A stretch of 60,779 bases of DNA from an uncultured Micrococcales bacterium (lineage in GTDB: Bacteria > Actinomycetota > Actinomycetes > Actinomycetales > Microbacteriaceae). The notes below the pieces were generated by a model. The model made no database searches. It was not told the DNA's origin and saw only the letters and a list, made by a program, of their open reading frames with translations. The DNA lies in NCBI GenBank assembly GCA_903909605.1, contig CAIVWH010000019.1, positions 1 through 60,779 on the forward strand, given 5' to 3'. This document shows positions 1 through 5,067 of this stretch, piece after piece (within the stretch, counting starts at the first letter, position 1; each line of letters starts with the position of its first letter). Made by a program: the position numbers and the translations under genes.

Positions 1-141
1 CACCGCCTGGCCACCGTGGTCGACAGCGACCTAATCATCGTTCTCCAGGATGGCGCCGTGGTCGGCGCCGGCACCCACAAGGAGCTGCTCAAGTCGACCC
101 CGCTCTACAAGGACCTGGCCAAGCAGCAGAAGCTCGCCTAG
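1..141 (+). CDS. ABC transporter ATP-binding protein, C-terminal fragment
   Basis: The gene enters from the left edge and only the last 46 residues are visible. They begin with HRLATV, the H-loop (switch histidine) of an ABC ATPase, and continue with DSDLIIVLQDGAVVGAGTHK, the usual C-terminal strand and helix of exporter-type nucleotide-binding domains. The frame ends at TAG 139-141. Substrate and partner cannot be told from this piece. It is separated from the next gene by 63 bases holding the GATC array. Confidence 0.85.
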   Translation, partial: HRLATVVDSDLIIVLQDGAVVGAGTHKELLKSTPLYKDLAKQQKLA

Positions 142-144
142 GTC

Positions 145-188
145 GATCGGCGTGGATCCCCGCTTTATGGGTGGGATCGCCTAAGATC
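145..188 (+). promoter_or_regulatory. Phased GATC array and hairpin upstream of the methyltransferase gene
   Basis: Four GATC tetranucleotides start at 145, 155, 175 and 185, spaced 10, 20 and 10 bp and symmetric about position 166.5. The inner pair sits in an inverted repeat (GATCCC 155-160 and GGGATC 173-178, extended by GGC 149-151 and GCC 179-181 around a three-base bulge). TAAGAT at 182-187, a possible -10 box, overlaps the last site. The downstream methylase and endonuclease look GATC-specific, so this may be an autoregulatory operator. The sites are seen directly; the role is inference. Confidence 0.6.
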
Positions 189-204
189 CTTGAAGGAGCG
201 TGAA

Positions 205-1458
205 ATGTCTTACAAGTCGCCGAAGTTCAAGGAACCAGCAAAGCCAGTCGGTAAAGTCGCTGAGCTATTCGCTGGCGTTGGCGGCTTCCGTATTGGTTTG
301 GCGGCAGCTGGGTGGGAAACGATTTTCTCTAACCAATGGGAGCCTTCGACCAAAACCCAGCATGCTTCAGATGTTTATGCGGCGCGCTTCGGTACCAAGG
401 GCCACACGAATGTTGACGTTGCAACCATCAAGGCTCTTCCAGAAGACACAGACCTCCTTGTCGGTGGCTTTCCTTGCCAGGACTACTCAGTTGCAAAATC
501 AAAGAGCGCTGCAAAAGGCCTTGAAGGCAAAAAGGGTGTCCTCTGGTGGGAGATTCTTCGCTTAGTTCAGGGTCAGAAACCAAAATTCATTTTCCTGGAG
601 AACGTCGATCGCCTGCTCAAGTCCCCATCCAGTCAACGCGGTCGCGACTTTGCAATCATGCTCAAGACACTCGGCGATGAAGGTTACGTCATTGAGTGGC
701 GAGTGGTGAACGCAGCTGAATACGGATTCCCGCAACGTCGCATCCGCGTCTTTATTATTGCCCGCAGGCTAGACACTATAGGCAAGGGTTGGGAGCTAAA
801 CCCGTGTGAGCACCTGTTCAAGACCGGCATTCTTGCCCGCGCTTTACCAATTCACCAAGAAGCTCTGCCCTTGAATGAAATCGACCTTTCCGAAGAAGCC
901 GATGTCATCTCCAGAACGTTCAACAAGGGCGCTGCCAAGTCTCCTTTCCTAAATGCCGGCGTCTACTTGAATGGTGTTGCGCATACAGTCAAAACATCTG
1001 CAGTTCTCGCTAAGGCACCTGTTGTGCTGGGCGACGTGATTCTCGAAGACAACGAAGTCCCGGCTGAATACTGGGTCTCGAAAGACAAATTGCCAGAGTG
1101 GAAGTACCTAAAAGGTGCCAAGAACATCGAGCGTACCCACGCTGGTGGAGGCACTTACACCTATAGCGAGGGTTCAATGGCCTTCCCGGATCTGCTAACC
1201 AATCCAAGCCGCACAATTTTGACGGGTGAGGGTGGAACCACAGCATCGCGCTTCAAGCACATCATCAAGACAGCCAAGGGTTACCGCCGCCTTATGCCTA
1301 TCGAGCTCGAGCGTTTAAACGGCTTCCCTGACAACTGGACTCAAACTGGCGCTGATGGAAACGAGATTTCTGACGTTCGCCGATCTTTCTTTATGGGAAA
1401 CGCGCTAGTCATTGGTCTCATCGAAAAAGTCGGCAAAGTTATTGCCAAGGAGCTCTAG
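205..1458 (+). CDS. DNA (cytosine-5-)-methyltransferase, Sau3AI-type (GATC) specificity likely
   Basis: C5-cytosine methyltransferase of a type II restriction-modification system; it transfers a methyl group from SAM to cytosine in the recognition site. Start chosen at ATG 205 because AAGGAG lies at 193-198; a TTG at 190 is in frame but overlaps that site. The protein has 417 residues. Motifs in order: I FAGVGG (22-27), IV PCQ with catalytic Cys91, VI ENV (132-134), VIII QRR (177-179), and motif X GNALV near residue 398. The stretch KGVLWWEI after PCQ and the DRLLKSP segment resemble, as I recall the family, M.Sau3AI. The convergent neighbour is a MutH/Sau3AI-fold nuclease, which supports GATC as target. 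The target-recognition region (about 200-340) cannot be read for specificity by eye. The gene looks more AT-rich than its neighbours, suggesting acquisition. Confidence 0.93.
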   Translation: MSYKSPKFKEPAKPVGKVAELFAGVGGFRIGLAAAGWETIFSNQWEPSTKTQHASDVYAARFGTKGHTNVDVATIKALPEDTDLLVGGFPCQDYSVAKSKSAAKGLEGKKGVLWWEILRLVQGQKPKFIFLENVDRLLKSPSSQRGRDFAIMLKTLGDEGYVIEWRVVNAAEYGFPQRRIRVFIIARRLDTIGKGWELNPCEHLFKTGILARALPIHQEALPLNEIDLSEEADVISRTFNKGAAKSPFLNAGVYLNGVAHTVKTSAVLAKAPVVLGDVILEDNEVPAEYWVSKDKLPEWKYLKGAKNIERTHAGGGTYTYSEGSMAFPDLLTNPSRTILTGEGGTTASRFKHIIKTAKGYRRLMPIELERLNGFPDNWTQTGADGNEISDVRRSFFMGNALVIGLIEKVGKVIAKEL

Positions 1459-1470
1459 CGGCTCGCTTCA

Positions 1471-2781
1471 TTAAAGATTCGCTACTACTTTTTCGATGTA
1501 CCTCTGATTTAGCCAGAAGCTCTTCTTCATCCGATATTCGCCGTCTGGGCAAAGAACGACGTCACGGCTGTCACGACCATGTGGGCGAACATGGGCTACA
1601 GTCGACCCGGCAATGCCCGGCAATACATAAGTGCCATCCTTGATTGCCGATTGCGTCTGACCGTAAACCTTCTCAGCCTCCTGGCGATCACTGAAGGGCA
1701 TATTCCAGTAGCCAAATTTGACGAACCGCTCCACACCGTTCACGTCAGCCTGAAATACAGCCAGCAGGAATTTTCTTTCAAGGGCTTCCGCAAACCCGCT
1801 TTCTTCCCAGGGTGTCGCTAGTACATCACCATAGTCGAACGGGGAAAACGACATAGATTCCCTGGCTTTGCCATTGGCCTTGAGATTGACAATCTTTAGC
1901 TGGATACCAGCAGCTTTTAGTTCCTTAACCGAAGTGTGGCCATTGGTAAGCATCCGCTCAACAAGAGTTCTGACCACTGACTTGGATGCACCGTTCGCAT
2001 CGAACTCCTGAACTAGCTCATCTTTCGATCGACCTAGATAAGGCCTGAGCTTGGCCGAAGTGGCTTGCTCAAAGGTCTGCCCTGGAACAATCGAAAGTGA
2101 ACCAGCCTCCGGGGCGGCGGCAATCAGGGACGTCAGGTAGCCCTGGCTAAAAGAAAATCCTCTTCTATTGGCAGGGAGGTCAGAAAAAGGTTGGGGTGTG
2201 GCGTCCCTGCCTTTACCAGCACCCTTCCTGCTCGCTTTTAAGTAGAACGTGTCACCCTCGGATAGCTCATGCGCGCGCCCATCAGCAACGATTTGCTGGA
2301 TAGTCAGCCAATCCCTCCGTATTTGATCAATATCGTGTTCGGTCATTACGTGAACAAATTGATTAGGGGTAAATCTGAGATCAATCTCGTTAGTGCCTGG
2401 CAGGTACTCGTAGCAGAGAATAAGCATTCTTTCGCACTTGGAAAGGAGGCTGCTTGATTCAAACTTTTCAGAGACTAACTCCATGAAATTGATAAGGGTT
2501 AGCGAGAGCCTTTCCTTTGCCTGAAGCTGACCGCCTTTAGTTCGCTTTAGGCCAGTTACTTTCAATTCAAGTTTTGCAAGGGGGAAGTCTGGCTCAGAAA
2601 AACTATTGGGCTCAATCCCGAAATAGTATTTCTCAACCAGGTTGCCCAACCGGCCTTTACCTGTACTGACTTTAATTGCAGAAGGTAAAGAGACCGCCTC
2701 TGCAAGGCTTTTCCTGATCAAGCCCTTCGCGTATCGAACAATATCTTCTTCCGAAGTCTCGTCATAATCTTCGATTGGCAT
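1471..2781 (-). CDS. Type II restriction endonuclease, Sau3AI/MutH family
   Basis: Predicted restriction endonuclease of 436 residues, somewhat shorter than Sau3AI (about 490). The N-terminal domain carries the MutH-type site: Glu50 in NLVEKYYFG, then Asp65-x6-Glu72-Leu-Lys74 (EPDFPLAKLELK), the same spacing as the D-x6-E-x-K of MutH. The C-terminal half (about 220-436) would match the second MutH-like, DNA-binding domain of Sau3AI. Both known relatives recognise GATC, which is the basis for the specificity call. ATG 2781 is preceded by GGGGGAG. The gene is tail-to-tail with the methyltransferase (12-base gap) and starts 24 bases after folD on the same strand, so it may be read from the glyA-folD promoter rather than one of its own. 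Exact cut site is unproven. Confidence 0.85.
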   Translation of the reverse strand: MPIEDYDETSEEDIVRYAKGLIRKSLAEAVSLPSAIKVSTGKGRLGNLVEKYYFGIEPNSFSEPDFPLAKLELKVTGLKRTKGGQLQAKERLSLTLINFMELVSEKFESSSLLSKCERMLILCYEYLPGTNEIDLRFTPNQFVHVMTEHDIDQIRRDWLTIQQIVADGRAHELSEGDTFYLKASRKGAGKGRDATPQPFSDLPANRRGFSFSQGYLTSLIAAAPEAGSLSIVPGQTFEQATSAKLRPYLGRSKDELVQEFDANGASKSVVRTLVERMLTNGHTSVKELKAAGIQLKIVNLKANGKARESMSFSPFDYGDVLATPWEESGFAEALERKFLLAVFQADVNGVERFVKFGYWNMPFSDRQEAEKVYGQTQSAIKDGTYVLPGIAGSTVAHVRPHGRDSRDVVLCPDGEYRMKKSFWLNQRYIEKVVANL

Positions 2782-2805
2782 TTCTCCCCCTGAGCCAAAA
2801 TCCGG

Positions 2806-3675
2806 TTAGCCGCGAGAGGCGATCTCGACCACGTTCTTGAGCAGCATCGCGCGGGTCATTGGGCCCACGCCACCAGGGTTCGGCGATAGCCAGCCGGCGA
2901 CGGCGGCAACATCCGGGTGAACGTCGCCGAGCAGAACAGACGAGGTGGCGTCATCGTGACGGGTTACGCCCACGTCAAGCACGGCCGCGCCGGGCTTGAC
3001 CCACGAGGGCTGCACGAAGTGCGCAACGCCAAGGGCAGCAACCACGATGTCGGCCCGAGCGACCGAAGCGGCAATGTCACGCGAGGCCGAGTGCAACAGG
3101 GTGACGGTTGAGTCGACGCCCTTGCGGCTCATCAGCAGGCCTAGCGGGCGGCCGACCGTGACCCCGCGACCAATCACGGCAACCTCTGCCCCGCGGGTTG
3201 GCACGTCATAGCGACGCAACAACTCGAGAATGCCGGCAGGGGTGCAAGGCAGTGGCGAAGTGATCTCTGAGTTCACACCAAGCACCAGTCGACCGAGGTT
3301 GGTCGGGTGCAGGCCGTCGGCATCCTTGGCCGGGTCGATCAGTTCGAGCATCTCGTTGGTGTCGATGCCAACCGGCAGCGGCAACTGCACGATATAGCCG
3401 GTGACCTCGGCAGCAGCATTGAGTTCGCGAATCGCGGCGCGCACATCATTCGCCGAAGCCGTTGCCGGCAAATCGATGCGAATCGAGTTCACGCCAATCT
3501 CGGCGCAGTCGCGATGTTTGCCGCCAACATACTTATGCGAACCCGCGTCGTCGCCAACCAGCAGGGTTCCCAAACCAGGATGCACATCCCGCTGCTTAAG
3601 CGCGATGACCTGCTGTGCCAACTCGGCCTTGATGGCCTTGGCGACAGCGAGTCCGTCGAGCTTAATTGCGGTCAT
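2806..3675 (-). CDS. folD: Bifunctional methylenetetrahydrofolate dehydrogenase / methenyltetrahydrofolate cyclohydrolase
   Basis: FolD oxidises 5,10-methylene-THF with NADP and hydrolyses the methenyl product to 10-formyl-THF, the one-carbon donor for PurN and PurH. The 289-residue length is normal. The active-site segment [13 protein letters not shown] contains Tyr49 and the catalytic Lys53. The C-terminal NADP-binding part is seen in [13 protein letters not shown], and the family end motif [12 protein letters not shown] is intact. It follows glyA by 3 bases on the same strand, a natural pair because SHMT makes its substrate. Confidence 0.97.
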
Positions 3676-3678
3676 TGG

Positions 3679-4965
3679 TTACCAGGTCTCTAGGCCTGGG
3701 TACAGCGGGAACGCGTCGGTCAACTTCTTGACGCGAGCCTTCAGCGCCGCGATGTCTGGGTTTGGCAGAAGCACGCCGGCGATGATGTCGGCAACCTCGG
3801 TGAACTCCTCGTGACCGAAGCCGCGAGTTGCAAGTGCCGGGGTGCCGATGCGAACACCCGAGGTGACCATTGGTGGTCGTGGGTCGTTCGGAACCGAGTT
3901 GCGGTTCACGGTGATGCCAACTTCGTGCAGCAGGTCTTCGGTCTGCTTGCCGTCAATTGGTGCATTGCGCAAATCAACGAGTACGAGGTGAACCTGTGTG
4001 CCACCGGTTAGCACCGAGACGCCGTTGCCAACCACGTCGGCCTGGGTCAAACGCTCGGCGATGATGCGCGCGCCATCGATGGTGCGCTGCTGACGGTCTT
4101 TGAACTCTGGGCCCATGGCGGCCTTGAAGGCCACCGCCTTGGCGGCAATCACGTGCATCAGCGGGCCGCCCTGCTGACCTGGGAACACCGAAGAGTCGAT
4201 CTTCTTGGCGAACTCTGCCTTGCAAAGAATCAAGCCAGAGCGCGGGCCGGCGAGGGTCTTGTGCACGGTGGTTGAAACCACATCCGCGTAAGGAACCGGC
4301 GATGGGTGCAGACCGGTTGCAACGAGACCTGCGAAGTGAGCCATGTCGACCCAAAGCTTTGCGCCAACCTCATCGGCGATCTTGCGGAACTCGGCGAAGT
4401 CGAGGTGGCGTGAGTAGGCAGACCATCCGGCGATGATGACGGCCGGCTTCACTTCGTGTGCACGCGCGCGCACGACGTCCATGTCGATCAAGAAAGTCTC
4501 TGGGTTCAACTCGTATGCGTGTGCCTCATACATGCGGCCCGAGAAGTTCAACTTCATGCCGTGAGTCAGGTGACCGCCGTGAGCAAGTTCCAAACCTAGG
4601 ATGCGGTCGCCAGGATTCGCCAACGCCATCAGCACCGCAGCATTTGCGCTCGCACCCGAGTGTGGCTGCACGTTTGCGTGCTCAGCTCCGAAGAGTTCCT
4701 TCGCGCGGTCGCGAGCAAGGTTCTCGGCAATGTCAACGACCTCGCAGCCACCGTAGTAGCGCTTGCCTGGGTAACCCTCGGCGTACTTGTTGGTGAGCAC
4801 CGAACCCTGCGCCTCAAGAACGCTGCGCGAAACGAAGTTCTCGCTTGCGATCATCTCGAGGAATCCGCGCTGACGGTCGAGCTCGCCCTGCAAAACTGCA
4901 GCGATTTCTGGGTCGGTTTCGACCAGCGGCATATTGAAGGTTGAAGGCAATTTTGAGGAGGTCAT
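3679..4965 (-). CDS. glyA: Serine hydroxymethyltransferase
   Basis: PLP enzyme that converts serine and THF to glycine and 5,10-methylene-THF. The open frame reaches back to 5031, but the added 22 residues have no family character; ATG 4965 gives 428 residues beginning [11 protein letters not shown]. The PLP lysine is Lys236 in [14 protein letters not shown]; the folate and PLP pocket motifs [15 protein letters not shown] and QPHSGASAN are intact. No Shine-Dalgarno is visible before 4965; instead TAAAAT lies 7 bases upstream, so the mRNA may be leaderless. First gene of glyA-folD, possibly extended to the endonuclease. Confidence 0.96.
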
Positions 4966-4972
4966 GGCCACA

Positions 4973-4978
4973 ATTTTA
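4973..4978 (-). promoter_or_regulatory. Candidate -10 box of glyA (leaderless start)
   Basis: On the minus strand TAAAAT is followed by 7 bases and then the ATG of glyA, placing the expected transcription start at or beside the start codon. No clear -35 element is visible 16-18 bp upstream, which lowers confidence. Confidence 0.45.
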
Positions 4979-5019
4979 CCCGCCGCCGTGTTGCCGCCGA
5001 GACGAAACCGGATGTTCGT

Positions 5020-5025
5020 TAGAAT
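5020..5025 (+). promoter_or_regulatory. Candidate -10 box for the miniprotein-purU transcript
   Basis: TAGAAT lies 42 bases before the ATG of the 41-residue ORF and faces away from the glyA promoter. It would give a leader of about 35 bases that includes the GGGAG ribosome site at 5058-5062. No convincing -35 is visible. Confidence 0.35.
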
Positions 5026-5067
5026 GAACAAAATTGTTGGGGAAACGTAAAGCCGAAGGGAGACTCA

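What the first reader, a model, noticed from the sequence alone, without database searches (positions are those of the whole stretch)
145..188. Four GATC sites in a 10/20/10-bp symmetric array in front of a GATC-type methyltransferase
GATC starts at 145, 155, 175 and 185; by chance one is expected about every 256 bp. The array is mirror-symmetric about 166.5, the inner pair lies in an inverted repeat, and a TAAGAT -10-like box overlaps the last site. The gene it precedes encodes a C5-methyltransferase whose partner nuclease has the Sau3AI/MutH site. The helical spacing suggests two pairs of sites on one DNA face, so methylation or binding of the enzyme itself could set its own expression. Positions are seen; specificity comes from family knowledge; regulation is inference.
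Basis: partly seen in the sequence, partly recalled or inferred. Interest (0 to 1): 0.72.

Follow-up and report, generated by a model that had tools for sequence, protein, structure and literature searches.

The report
Methylase promoter carrying its own sites
The switch region of a DNA-methylating defence gene carries several copies of the four-letter word that the enzyme is expected to methylate, and many related genes keep such copies there, which suggests that the enzyme senses and limits its own production.

Summary
The four GATC sites at 145/155/175/185 are real and lie in the 63-bp gap before a C5-methyltransferase gene (M) convergent with a Sau3AI-family nuclease gene. Density alone is weak evidence: random placement gives such a cluster somewhere in the window in 14% of trials. 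Comparison is stronger. In 27 related actinobacterial loci, the 100 bp before M hold 43 GATC (8.4 expected). In the 13 outside Nanopelagicaceae, 18 of 29 site pairs are 10, 20 or 30 bp apart (random mean 1.5). The array belongs to the inserted cassette: six empty sites lack it. It occurs with Sau3AI-like and BglII-like partners, so M or its methylation is the likely reader. Distant M genes often have a TTGATC -35 box: 13 of 97 M genes against 0 of 402 other ORFs, and 9 of 22 plasmid records not used to find the pattern (5 of 13 groups). Best explanation: negative autoregulation through the enzyme's own sites in its core promoter, as in AhdI, CfrBI and LlaDII, here multi-site and conserved. Direction and mode are inferred. 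The exact four-site array is unique to the window; relatives have one to four sites, and three of 27 have none.

The parts
142..204 (+). intergenic promoter region of the methyltransferase gene
   Evidence: no GATC in the short gap of six empty sites in same-genus genomes
145..148 (.). GATC box A
   Evidence: at this spacing only in the window among the ten promoters aligned
155..158 (.). GATC box B, just upstream of the inferred -35 position; the most widely kept box (22 of 28 loci)
175..178 (.). GATC box C, 20 bp from B, in the inferred -35/-10 spacer
   Evidence: also in L006, L017, L018, L019, L021, L086
185..188 (.). GATC box D, overlapping the -10-like box
   Evidence: also in L006, L014, L017, L018, L019, L030, L082
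155..178 (.). inverted repeat GATCCC/GGGATC with a 12-nt gap
   Evidence: beyond GATC not conserved
182..187 (+). -10-like TAAGAT (TAnGAT in 8 aligned loci; TATGCT in most Nanopelagicaceae loci)
   Evidence: not found by the sigma-70 scan, so inferred
192..198 (+). ribosome-binding site GAAGGAG
   Evidence: by eye
205..1458 (+). C5-methyltransferase gene M (417 aa), 16 residues before the methylase domain, no room for an N-terminal HTH domain
   Evidence: PF00145 at residues 17-414, TIGR00675
1471..2781 (-). Sau3AI-family restriction endonuclease gene R, convergent with M
   Evidence: NF040973 350.6 bits (cut-off 300), PF02976, PDB 4pxg
142..2805 (.). restriction-modification cassette inserted between an ABC-transporter-like gene and folD; right end approximate
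   Evidence: six relatives have the two flanking genes adjacent; folD by Pfam; ABC identity of the 46-aa upstream ORF end judged by eye, no Pfam match

Best explanation
The GATC array is the operator of the methyltransferase's own promoter. M recognises GATC. In an unmethylated cell the sites are free and M is transcribed strongly. As M accumulates it occupies and methylates the sites beside the -35 position, in the spacer and on the -10 box, and transcription falls. M is thereby held at a level just sufficient to protect the genome; replication, which leaves the sites hemimethylated, could briefly relieve the block. Shown: the sites, their enrichment, spacing and conservation before related M genes, and that they travel with the cassette. 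Inferred: the promoter elements, GATC specificity in this strain, repression rather than activation, and whether binding or methylation does it.
For: (1) Enrichment: 43 GATC against 8.4 expected in the 100 bp before M in 27 actinobacterial loci; in the 13 outside Nanopelagicaceae GATC is 6.6-fold enriched, first of 16 palindromes (TATA next, 3.4-fold on 3 sites). (2) Spacing: 18 of 29 pairs at 10/20/30 bp, random mean 1.52, 0 of 20,000 trials as high; 14 of 25 after removing one of each close pair. (3) In four loci that share boxes B, C and D (window, L006, L017, L019) the 30 other promoter columns are only 33-63% identical between pairs. (4) Pattern search of 67 genus genomes, without reference to M, for GATC-N16-GATC-N6-GATC: 4 of 8 genomes with M have it, each only at the M promoter; 7 of 59 without a detected M have one stray copy. 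(5) Loci with B/C spacing lie in several branches of the M tree. (6) Same boxes with Sau3AI-like and BglII-like partners. (7) TTGATC -35 boxes: 13 of 97 M genes, 0 of 402 non-overlapping control ORFs; plasmid records 9 of 22, 0.07 expected. (8) A Sau3AI-partnered homologue, M. hominis DCM2, gives GATm5C (PMC10305163, passages). [quoted passage not shown]
Against: No expression, binding or methylation data exist for this strain. The window promoter has no recognisable -35 (CCCGCT at 17-bp spacing) and the sigma-70 scan found none, so the array could instead help activation. Fourteen of 28 actinobacterial loci (Nanopelagicaceae) keep a single aligned box and 4 lack it. The four loci of point (3) were picked because they share the boxes; L030 keeps 75% and L082 50-67% of the same 12 GATC columns. 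Among 70 distant loci the overall enrichment is only 1.9-fold, 52 of 70 have no GATC in 100 bp, and 13 of 22 plasmid records lack the TTGATC promoter. L015 has M without an array.
Confidence: 0.68

Rival explanations
1. The restriction enzyme itself (Sau3AI needs two sites and has a second GATC-binding domain; recalled) binds the array and regulates M.
For: The partner is Sau3AI-like and paired sites would suit a two-site enzyme (recalled).
Against: The same B/C/D boxes occur upstream of M genes whose partner is BglII-like (L006, L019) or a protein that profile comparison joins to that group (L017). A reader that is swapped out does not easily explain a conserved operator, though BglII-like enzymes also bind GATC-containing sites (recalled).
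Confidence: 0.07
2. The array is a positive element: M, or another GATC reader, acting at box B just upstream of a poor -35, activates transcription.
For: The -35 of window-type promoters is non-canonical, and box B lies about 38 bp before the inferred start, where some activators bind (recalled). A GTC element lies in the spacer of many relatives.
Against: Boxes on the -10 (D) and in -35 hexamers (TTGATC) lie where binding or methylation would obstruct RNA polymerase. In CfrBI and AhdI own-site promoters are repressed (PMC12707154, PMC5333194; passages).
Confidence: 0.12
3. Chance or inheritance: the cluster is an accident shared by descent, and box D is simply a TAnGAT -10 box followed by C.
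For: Four GATC within 44 bp somewhere in such a window occurred in 14% of random trials. Box D is partly explained by TAnGAT.
Against: Fixed spacings recur in loci whose other promoter columns have largely diverged. TTGATC -35 boxes recur in other phyla and in plasmid records not used to find the pattern.
Confidence: 0.05
4. A host GATC-binding protein unrelated to M or R reads the array.
For: Not excluded by sequence alone.
Against: Promoter GATC sites follow M in several phyla and on plasmids, which a single host factor would not explain.
Confidence: 0.05

Closest known systems
AhdI restriction-modification system, M promoter
   Same: M and R units convergent; M methylates sites overlapping RNA polymerase in its own core promoter, giving negative feedback (PMC5333194, passages)
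   Different: AhdI has a C protein and a two-subunit M2S2 methylase (abstract start in listing); here the gaps around M and R leave no room for a C gene, M is a single-chain C5 enzyme, and there are up to four spaced sites
CfrBI system
   Same: the methylase's own site lies in its promoter and methylation blocks RNA polymerase there (PMC12707154, passages)
   Different: CfrBI genes are divergent with overlapping promoters, and methylation frees the R promoter; here the genes are convergent and the array lies before M only
LlaDII system
   Same: listed as promoter methylation affecting only the methylase gene (PMC12707154, passages)
   Different: other recognition sequence (recalled); the original paper is not held, so details were not checked
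Regulatory methylases with an N-terminal HTH (EcoRII, SsoII, ScrFI, MspI and others)
   Same: methylase represses its own gene (PMC3874152, passages)
   Different: they bind an operator through an N-terminal HTH domain; here only 16 residues precede the methylase domain and the conserved element is the expected catalytic target
Sau3AI- and BglII/BstYI-type systems
   Same: enzyme families of M's partners (plasmid annotations)
   Different: the listings seen in searches (15, 12 and 10 papers shown of 42, 23 and 797) include no title or abstract on GATC in their M promoters

Membership tests
Sau3AI-type restriction-modification system | Sau3AI-family endonuclease next to M | tested here: met
   NF040973 350.6 bits against cut-off 300; phmmer to PDB 4pxg E 2.5e-45
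Sau3AI-type restriction-modification system | C5-cytosine methyltransferase | tested here: met
   PF00145 E 4.1e-61, TIGR00675 209.6 bits against 100.65
Sau3AI-type restriction-modification system | M methylates GATm5C | tested here: inconclusive
   not measurable here; a Sau3AI-partnered homologue does (PMC10305163). Partners of 25 of 28 loci are Sau3AI-like (8) or BglII-like (17; of three scanned with Pfam two pass the PF09195 cut-off, one narrowly, one falls below; three join by profile only). Pooled GATC is the most depleted palindrome (0.68 in 26 actinobacterial loci) but lowest in only 3 of the 26 singly
Promoter-methylation autoregulated R-M systems (AhdI, CfrBI, LlaDII) | enzyme's own recognition site(s) inside the core promoter of M | tested here: inconclusive
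   GATC sites confirmed and conserved; promoter inferred from a conserved TAnGAT and not found by the consensus scan; specificity inferred
Promoter-methylation autoregulated R-M systems (AhdI, CfrBI, LlaDII) | methylation or M changes transcription from that promoter | not testable with these tools
   needs reporter and in vitro transcription
HTH-fused regulatory methylases | N-terminal HTH domain on M | tested here: not met
   only PF00145, residues 17-414 of 417
C-protein-controlled R-M systems | C gene beside M or R | tested here: not met
   gaps before M, between M and R and behind R are 63, 12 and 24 bp; a C gene elsewhere in the genome was not sought

The most novel reading that the evidence does not exclude
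Feedback through the enzyme's own target in its promoter is not a rarity but a widespread, portable property of the GATC C5-methylase family: in several phyla the -35 hexamer itself is the recognition site (TTGATC), whichever nuclease is attached. In freshwater actinobacteria it has been elaborated into a helically phased array of three to four sites that reads methylation state in a graded or cooperative way and could couple M synthesis to replication through hemimethylation.
Probability: 0.35. Interest if true: 0.78.

Novelty: new variant of a known kind. Interest (0 to 1): 0.62.

Why it matters
How a restriction-modification unit without a C protein balances methylase and nuclease on entering a new cell is an old question. 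A 2025 review calls regulation by promoter methylation 'apparently rarely used' and, in the section seen, names CfrBI, AhdI and LlaDII (PMC12707154, passages). If the pattern found here is functional, the mechanism is common in one large methylase family, is visible from sequence alone, and lets one infer a methylase's target from its promoter. The multi-site array also offers a simple natural system for testing how the number and phase of methylated sites set a promoter's response.

Tried and rejected
RNA structure: the 139-207 transcript folds no better than its shuffles (z 0.21). Canonical sigma-70 promoter: none found in 1-3000. TTGTCA of Nanopelagicaceae as a -35 box: rejected by eye, no -10-like box 16-18 bp downstream. 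R promoter in the window: one GATC (2821) lies upstream of R but within folD codons; not taken as evidence. R upstream regions of 9 plasmid loci: 2 contain GATC, both in the gap shared with a divergent M. Viral relatives: of 16 loci, 11 were counted (2 duplicates, 3 partial); one has a single GATC within 100 bp, none a TTGATC promoter.

Limits of the counts. Dropped before the count of 97: partial rows L020, L107, L110, L112 and duplicates. L164 came later and is in the 28 but not the 27 or 97. The M start codon was chosen by a heuristic and may be off in some loci. Expected GATC uses each locus's own density, promoter included. The TTGATC pattern was noticed in the same 70 loci in which it was first counted; only the plasmid set tests it independently. 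In the plasmid set the annotated start was used and all 22 records are counted (17: 7 hits; with the other 5, 9 of 22); second matches in two records were not examined. At more than 80% ungapped identity the 22 fall into 13 groups, of which 5 have the promoter. The first control of 596 ORFs included overlapping ORFs; a cleaner control of 402 non-overlapping ORFs of 150 aa or more also gave 0. ORFs are not proven genes, and Fisher tests ignore relatedness. The script printed an expectation of 0.13 for 100 bp; for the 130 bp scanned it is about 0.17, the hits themselves included in the rate.

Full report
OBSERVATION. GATC starts at 145, 155, 175 and 185, all in the 63-bp gap between an upstream ORF (stop 139-141) and the ATG (205) of a 417-aa C5-methyltransferase gene. 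The inner sites form GATCCC/GGGATC, and TAAGAT (182-187) overlaps the last. The window has 256 GATC, as expected, and one cluster of four within 44 bp; random placement gives such a cluster in 286 of 2000 trials. Density alone is weak evidence.

THE GENES. M matches PF00145 and TIGR00675. R (2781-1471, minus strand, convergent) is a Sau3AI-family equivalog above its cut-off (350.6 bits, cut-off 300) and matches Sau3AI structures. The upstream ORF looks like the end of an ABC transporter ATPase (judged by eye; 46 aa, no Pfam match). The window starts a contig of a 1.34-Mb, 31-contig genome. L091, from same-genus genome G421, has the same M sequence as L019, whose record is titled Rhodoluna sp., so the host is probably Rhodoluna-like (inference). 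M was found in 8 of 67 genus genomes and 7 of 398 sampled family genomes.

THE CASSETTE CARRIES THE ARRAY. Of 30 folD loci fetched from the genus, one the window's own, six have the ABC-like gene and folD convergent with only a short gap and no GATC in the 67-107 bp printed. One of these six (L142, G154) has M elsewhere in its genome. The other 23 did not show the ABC end within the fetched flank and say nothing. The array is thus part of the inserted unit.

CONSERVATION. Searches fetched M loci. Without duplicates and four partial rows 97 remain, 27 of them actinobacterial at 58% identity or more. In these 27, the 100 bp before the start codon hold 43 GATC against 8.4 expected from each locus's own density; 24 of 27 have at least one (7.2 expected). 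Among 13 outside Nanopelagicaceae there are 28 against 4.1; in the palindrome control GATC is enriched 6.6-fold and TATA, next, 3.4-fold on three sites. Of 29 site pairs in those 13 loci, 18 are 10, 20 or 30 bp apart; random placement gives 1.52 and never reached 18 in 20,000 trials. With one of each close pair removed it is 14 of 25.

Aligned on the last site: window A, B, C, D. L006, L017 and L019 share B, C, D exactly, and L006 and L017 have a fourth site farther upstream, giving 25/20/10 and 16/20/10. L030 has B and D; L082 has two sites 31 bp apart; L018 has C and D plus a site 24 bp before D; L014 has two sites 24 bp apart; L021 and L086 have B and C. In L014 and L018 the site 24 bp before D is part of a TTGATC -35 box. 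Fourteen loci of one family (f33; named Nanopelagicaceae from the titles of L012 and L013) keep box B inside a well conserved promoter. L015, L016, L087 and the later partial locus L164 lack B. In L015 the M start follows a GmrSD-type ORF by 5 bp. Among window, L006, L017 and L019, chosen because they share B, C and D, the 30 other promoter columns are 33-63% identical between pairs and the proteins 64-81%; L030 keeps 75% and L082 50-67% of the same GATC columns. In the M tree, drawn with outgroups, B/C spacing is found from the early-branching L021/L086 pair to the window; several inner branches have modest support.

PATTERN SEARCH WITHOUT REFERENCE TO M. GATC-N16-GATC-N6-GATC was sought in 67 genus genomes. 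Four of the eight M-bearing genomes have it (G000, G348, G421, G439), each only at the M promoter. Seven of the 59 without a detected M have one copy each; two of these copies are identical.

WHO READS IT. Partners of the 28 actinobacterial loci: 8 Sau3AI-like; 12 resembling one BglII-like protein and 2 another; 3 of a group that profile comparison joins to the BglII-like set (97.5% probability); 2 unidentified (L008, L011); 1 not seen because the contig ends (L164). The Pfam BglII match is narrow: L002 26.1 and L005 37.6 bits against a cut-off of 26, L019 23.0, below it. The B/C/D array occurs with a Sau3AI-like partner (window), BglII-like partners (L006, L019) and the more distant group (L017). 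The constant factor is M. It has no N-terminal DNA-binding extension, so the plausible link is its catalytic recognition of GATC.

SPECIFICITY. In Metamycoplasma hominis all four dcm2-positive strains among 22 sequenced, whose DCM2 has a Sau3AI-type partner, show GATm5C, and DCM2 is described as a homologue of M. hyorhinis Mhy3 (PMC10305163, passages). A methylase from M. hyorhinis next to Sau3AI-family genes is 46% identical to ours over 96% of the query; that it is Mhy3 is my inference. Pooled over loci GATC is the most depleted palindrome (0.68 in 26 actinobacterial, 0.54 in 70 distant loci), but singly it is lowest in only 3 of 26 and 18 of 70, and Campylobacterota loci deplete GGCC as much.

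BEYOND ACTINOBACTERIA. Among 70 distant M genes GATC near the start is mildly enriched (27 against 14.5; 18 of 70 have any, 11.7 expected). Eleven have TTGATC-N16-18-TANNNT within 130 bp upstream. With the two actinobacterial loci it is 13 of 97, against 0 of 596 ORF starts or 0 of 402 non-overlapping ones; TTGACA occurs in 3 of 97 M genes and 2 of 402 controls. On plasmid records not used to find the pattern, 9 of 22 have it, 0.07 expected; 6 occurrences lie elsewhere in the same loci; 5 of 13 sequence groups are positive. Six of the first seven have TATAAT. Three more (L168, L169, L170) have GATC directly before a TGTTCA -35-like box (by eye). The other 10 records lack both; 8 of them have no GATC within 100 bp. 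Where TTGATC is the -35 box, methylation or binding would fall on the box itself.

MECHANISM. I conclude that M represses its own promoter through its own sites. Shown: site positions, enrichment, spacing, linkage to M, and occurrence with different R types. Inferred: specificity in this strain, the -10 and start site, the repressive direction, and binding versus methylation. Weak points: the window promoter lacks a recognisable -35, the consensus scan finds no promoter, and activation is not excluded.

WHAT IS KNOWN. AhdI (convergent; methylation of sites in the M core promoter represses it; PMC5333194, passages), CfrBI and LlaDII (PMC12707154, passages; PMC3874152, passages) work this way. 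The original CfrBI and LlaDII papers are not held. The 2025 review calls the mechanism apparently rarely used. The listings of searches, which show only the top of longer lists, contain no title or abstract on GATC sites in promoters of Sau3AI-type methylase genes; the library holds open-licence papers only, so absence from print is not established. I rate this a new variant of a known kind: multi-site, phased, conserved and separable from the nuclease.

Noticed in passing
28 actinobacterial loci incl. window 205-2781: One methylase lineage is paired with Sau3AI-like, BglII-like or unidentified nucleases in different genomes, scattered over the M tree: repeated partner swapping beside a constant methylase.
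   Followed up: partly
L035, L068, L070 upstream of M: These M genes have a TTGATC promoter-like sequence 111-118 bp upstream and share a similar leader (GAGTCTTCnCCGCC) before the start codon, possibly a second control element.
   Followed up: no
Nanopelagicaceae M promoters (L002-L005, L007-L013, L092, L093, L095): A conserved TGTC element lies in the -35/-10 spacer, about 11 bp before the -10-like box; a GTC is at a similar place in L006, L014, L017, L018, L019, L030 and L082 but not in the window, L021 or L086.
   Followed up: no
window 1471-5031 (-): R lies directly downstream of glyA and folD on the same strand, so it may be transcribed by read-through from these housekeeping genes, against the direction of M.
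   Followed up: no
L015:1983-3986: A GmrSD-type gene ends 5 bp before the M start in the same-genus locus that lacks the GATC array.
   Followed up: partly
L008:5260-9182 and L011: In two loci the gene beside M encodes an unidentified 182-191 aa protein, next to a 1123-aa ORF that in L008 is an SNF2-like helicase by Pfam.
   Followed up: no
L168, L169: Two Exiguobacterium plasmids have a very short patch repair endonuclease gene as the next annotated gene after this methylase.
   Followed up: no
G000:C1:1319-1427: A 21-bp repeat with GATC in each unit gives several spaced GATC triples in the window's own genome.
   Followed up: no
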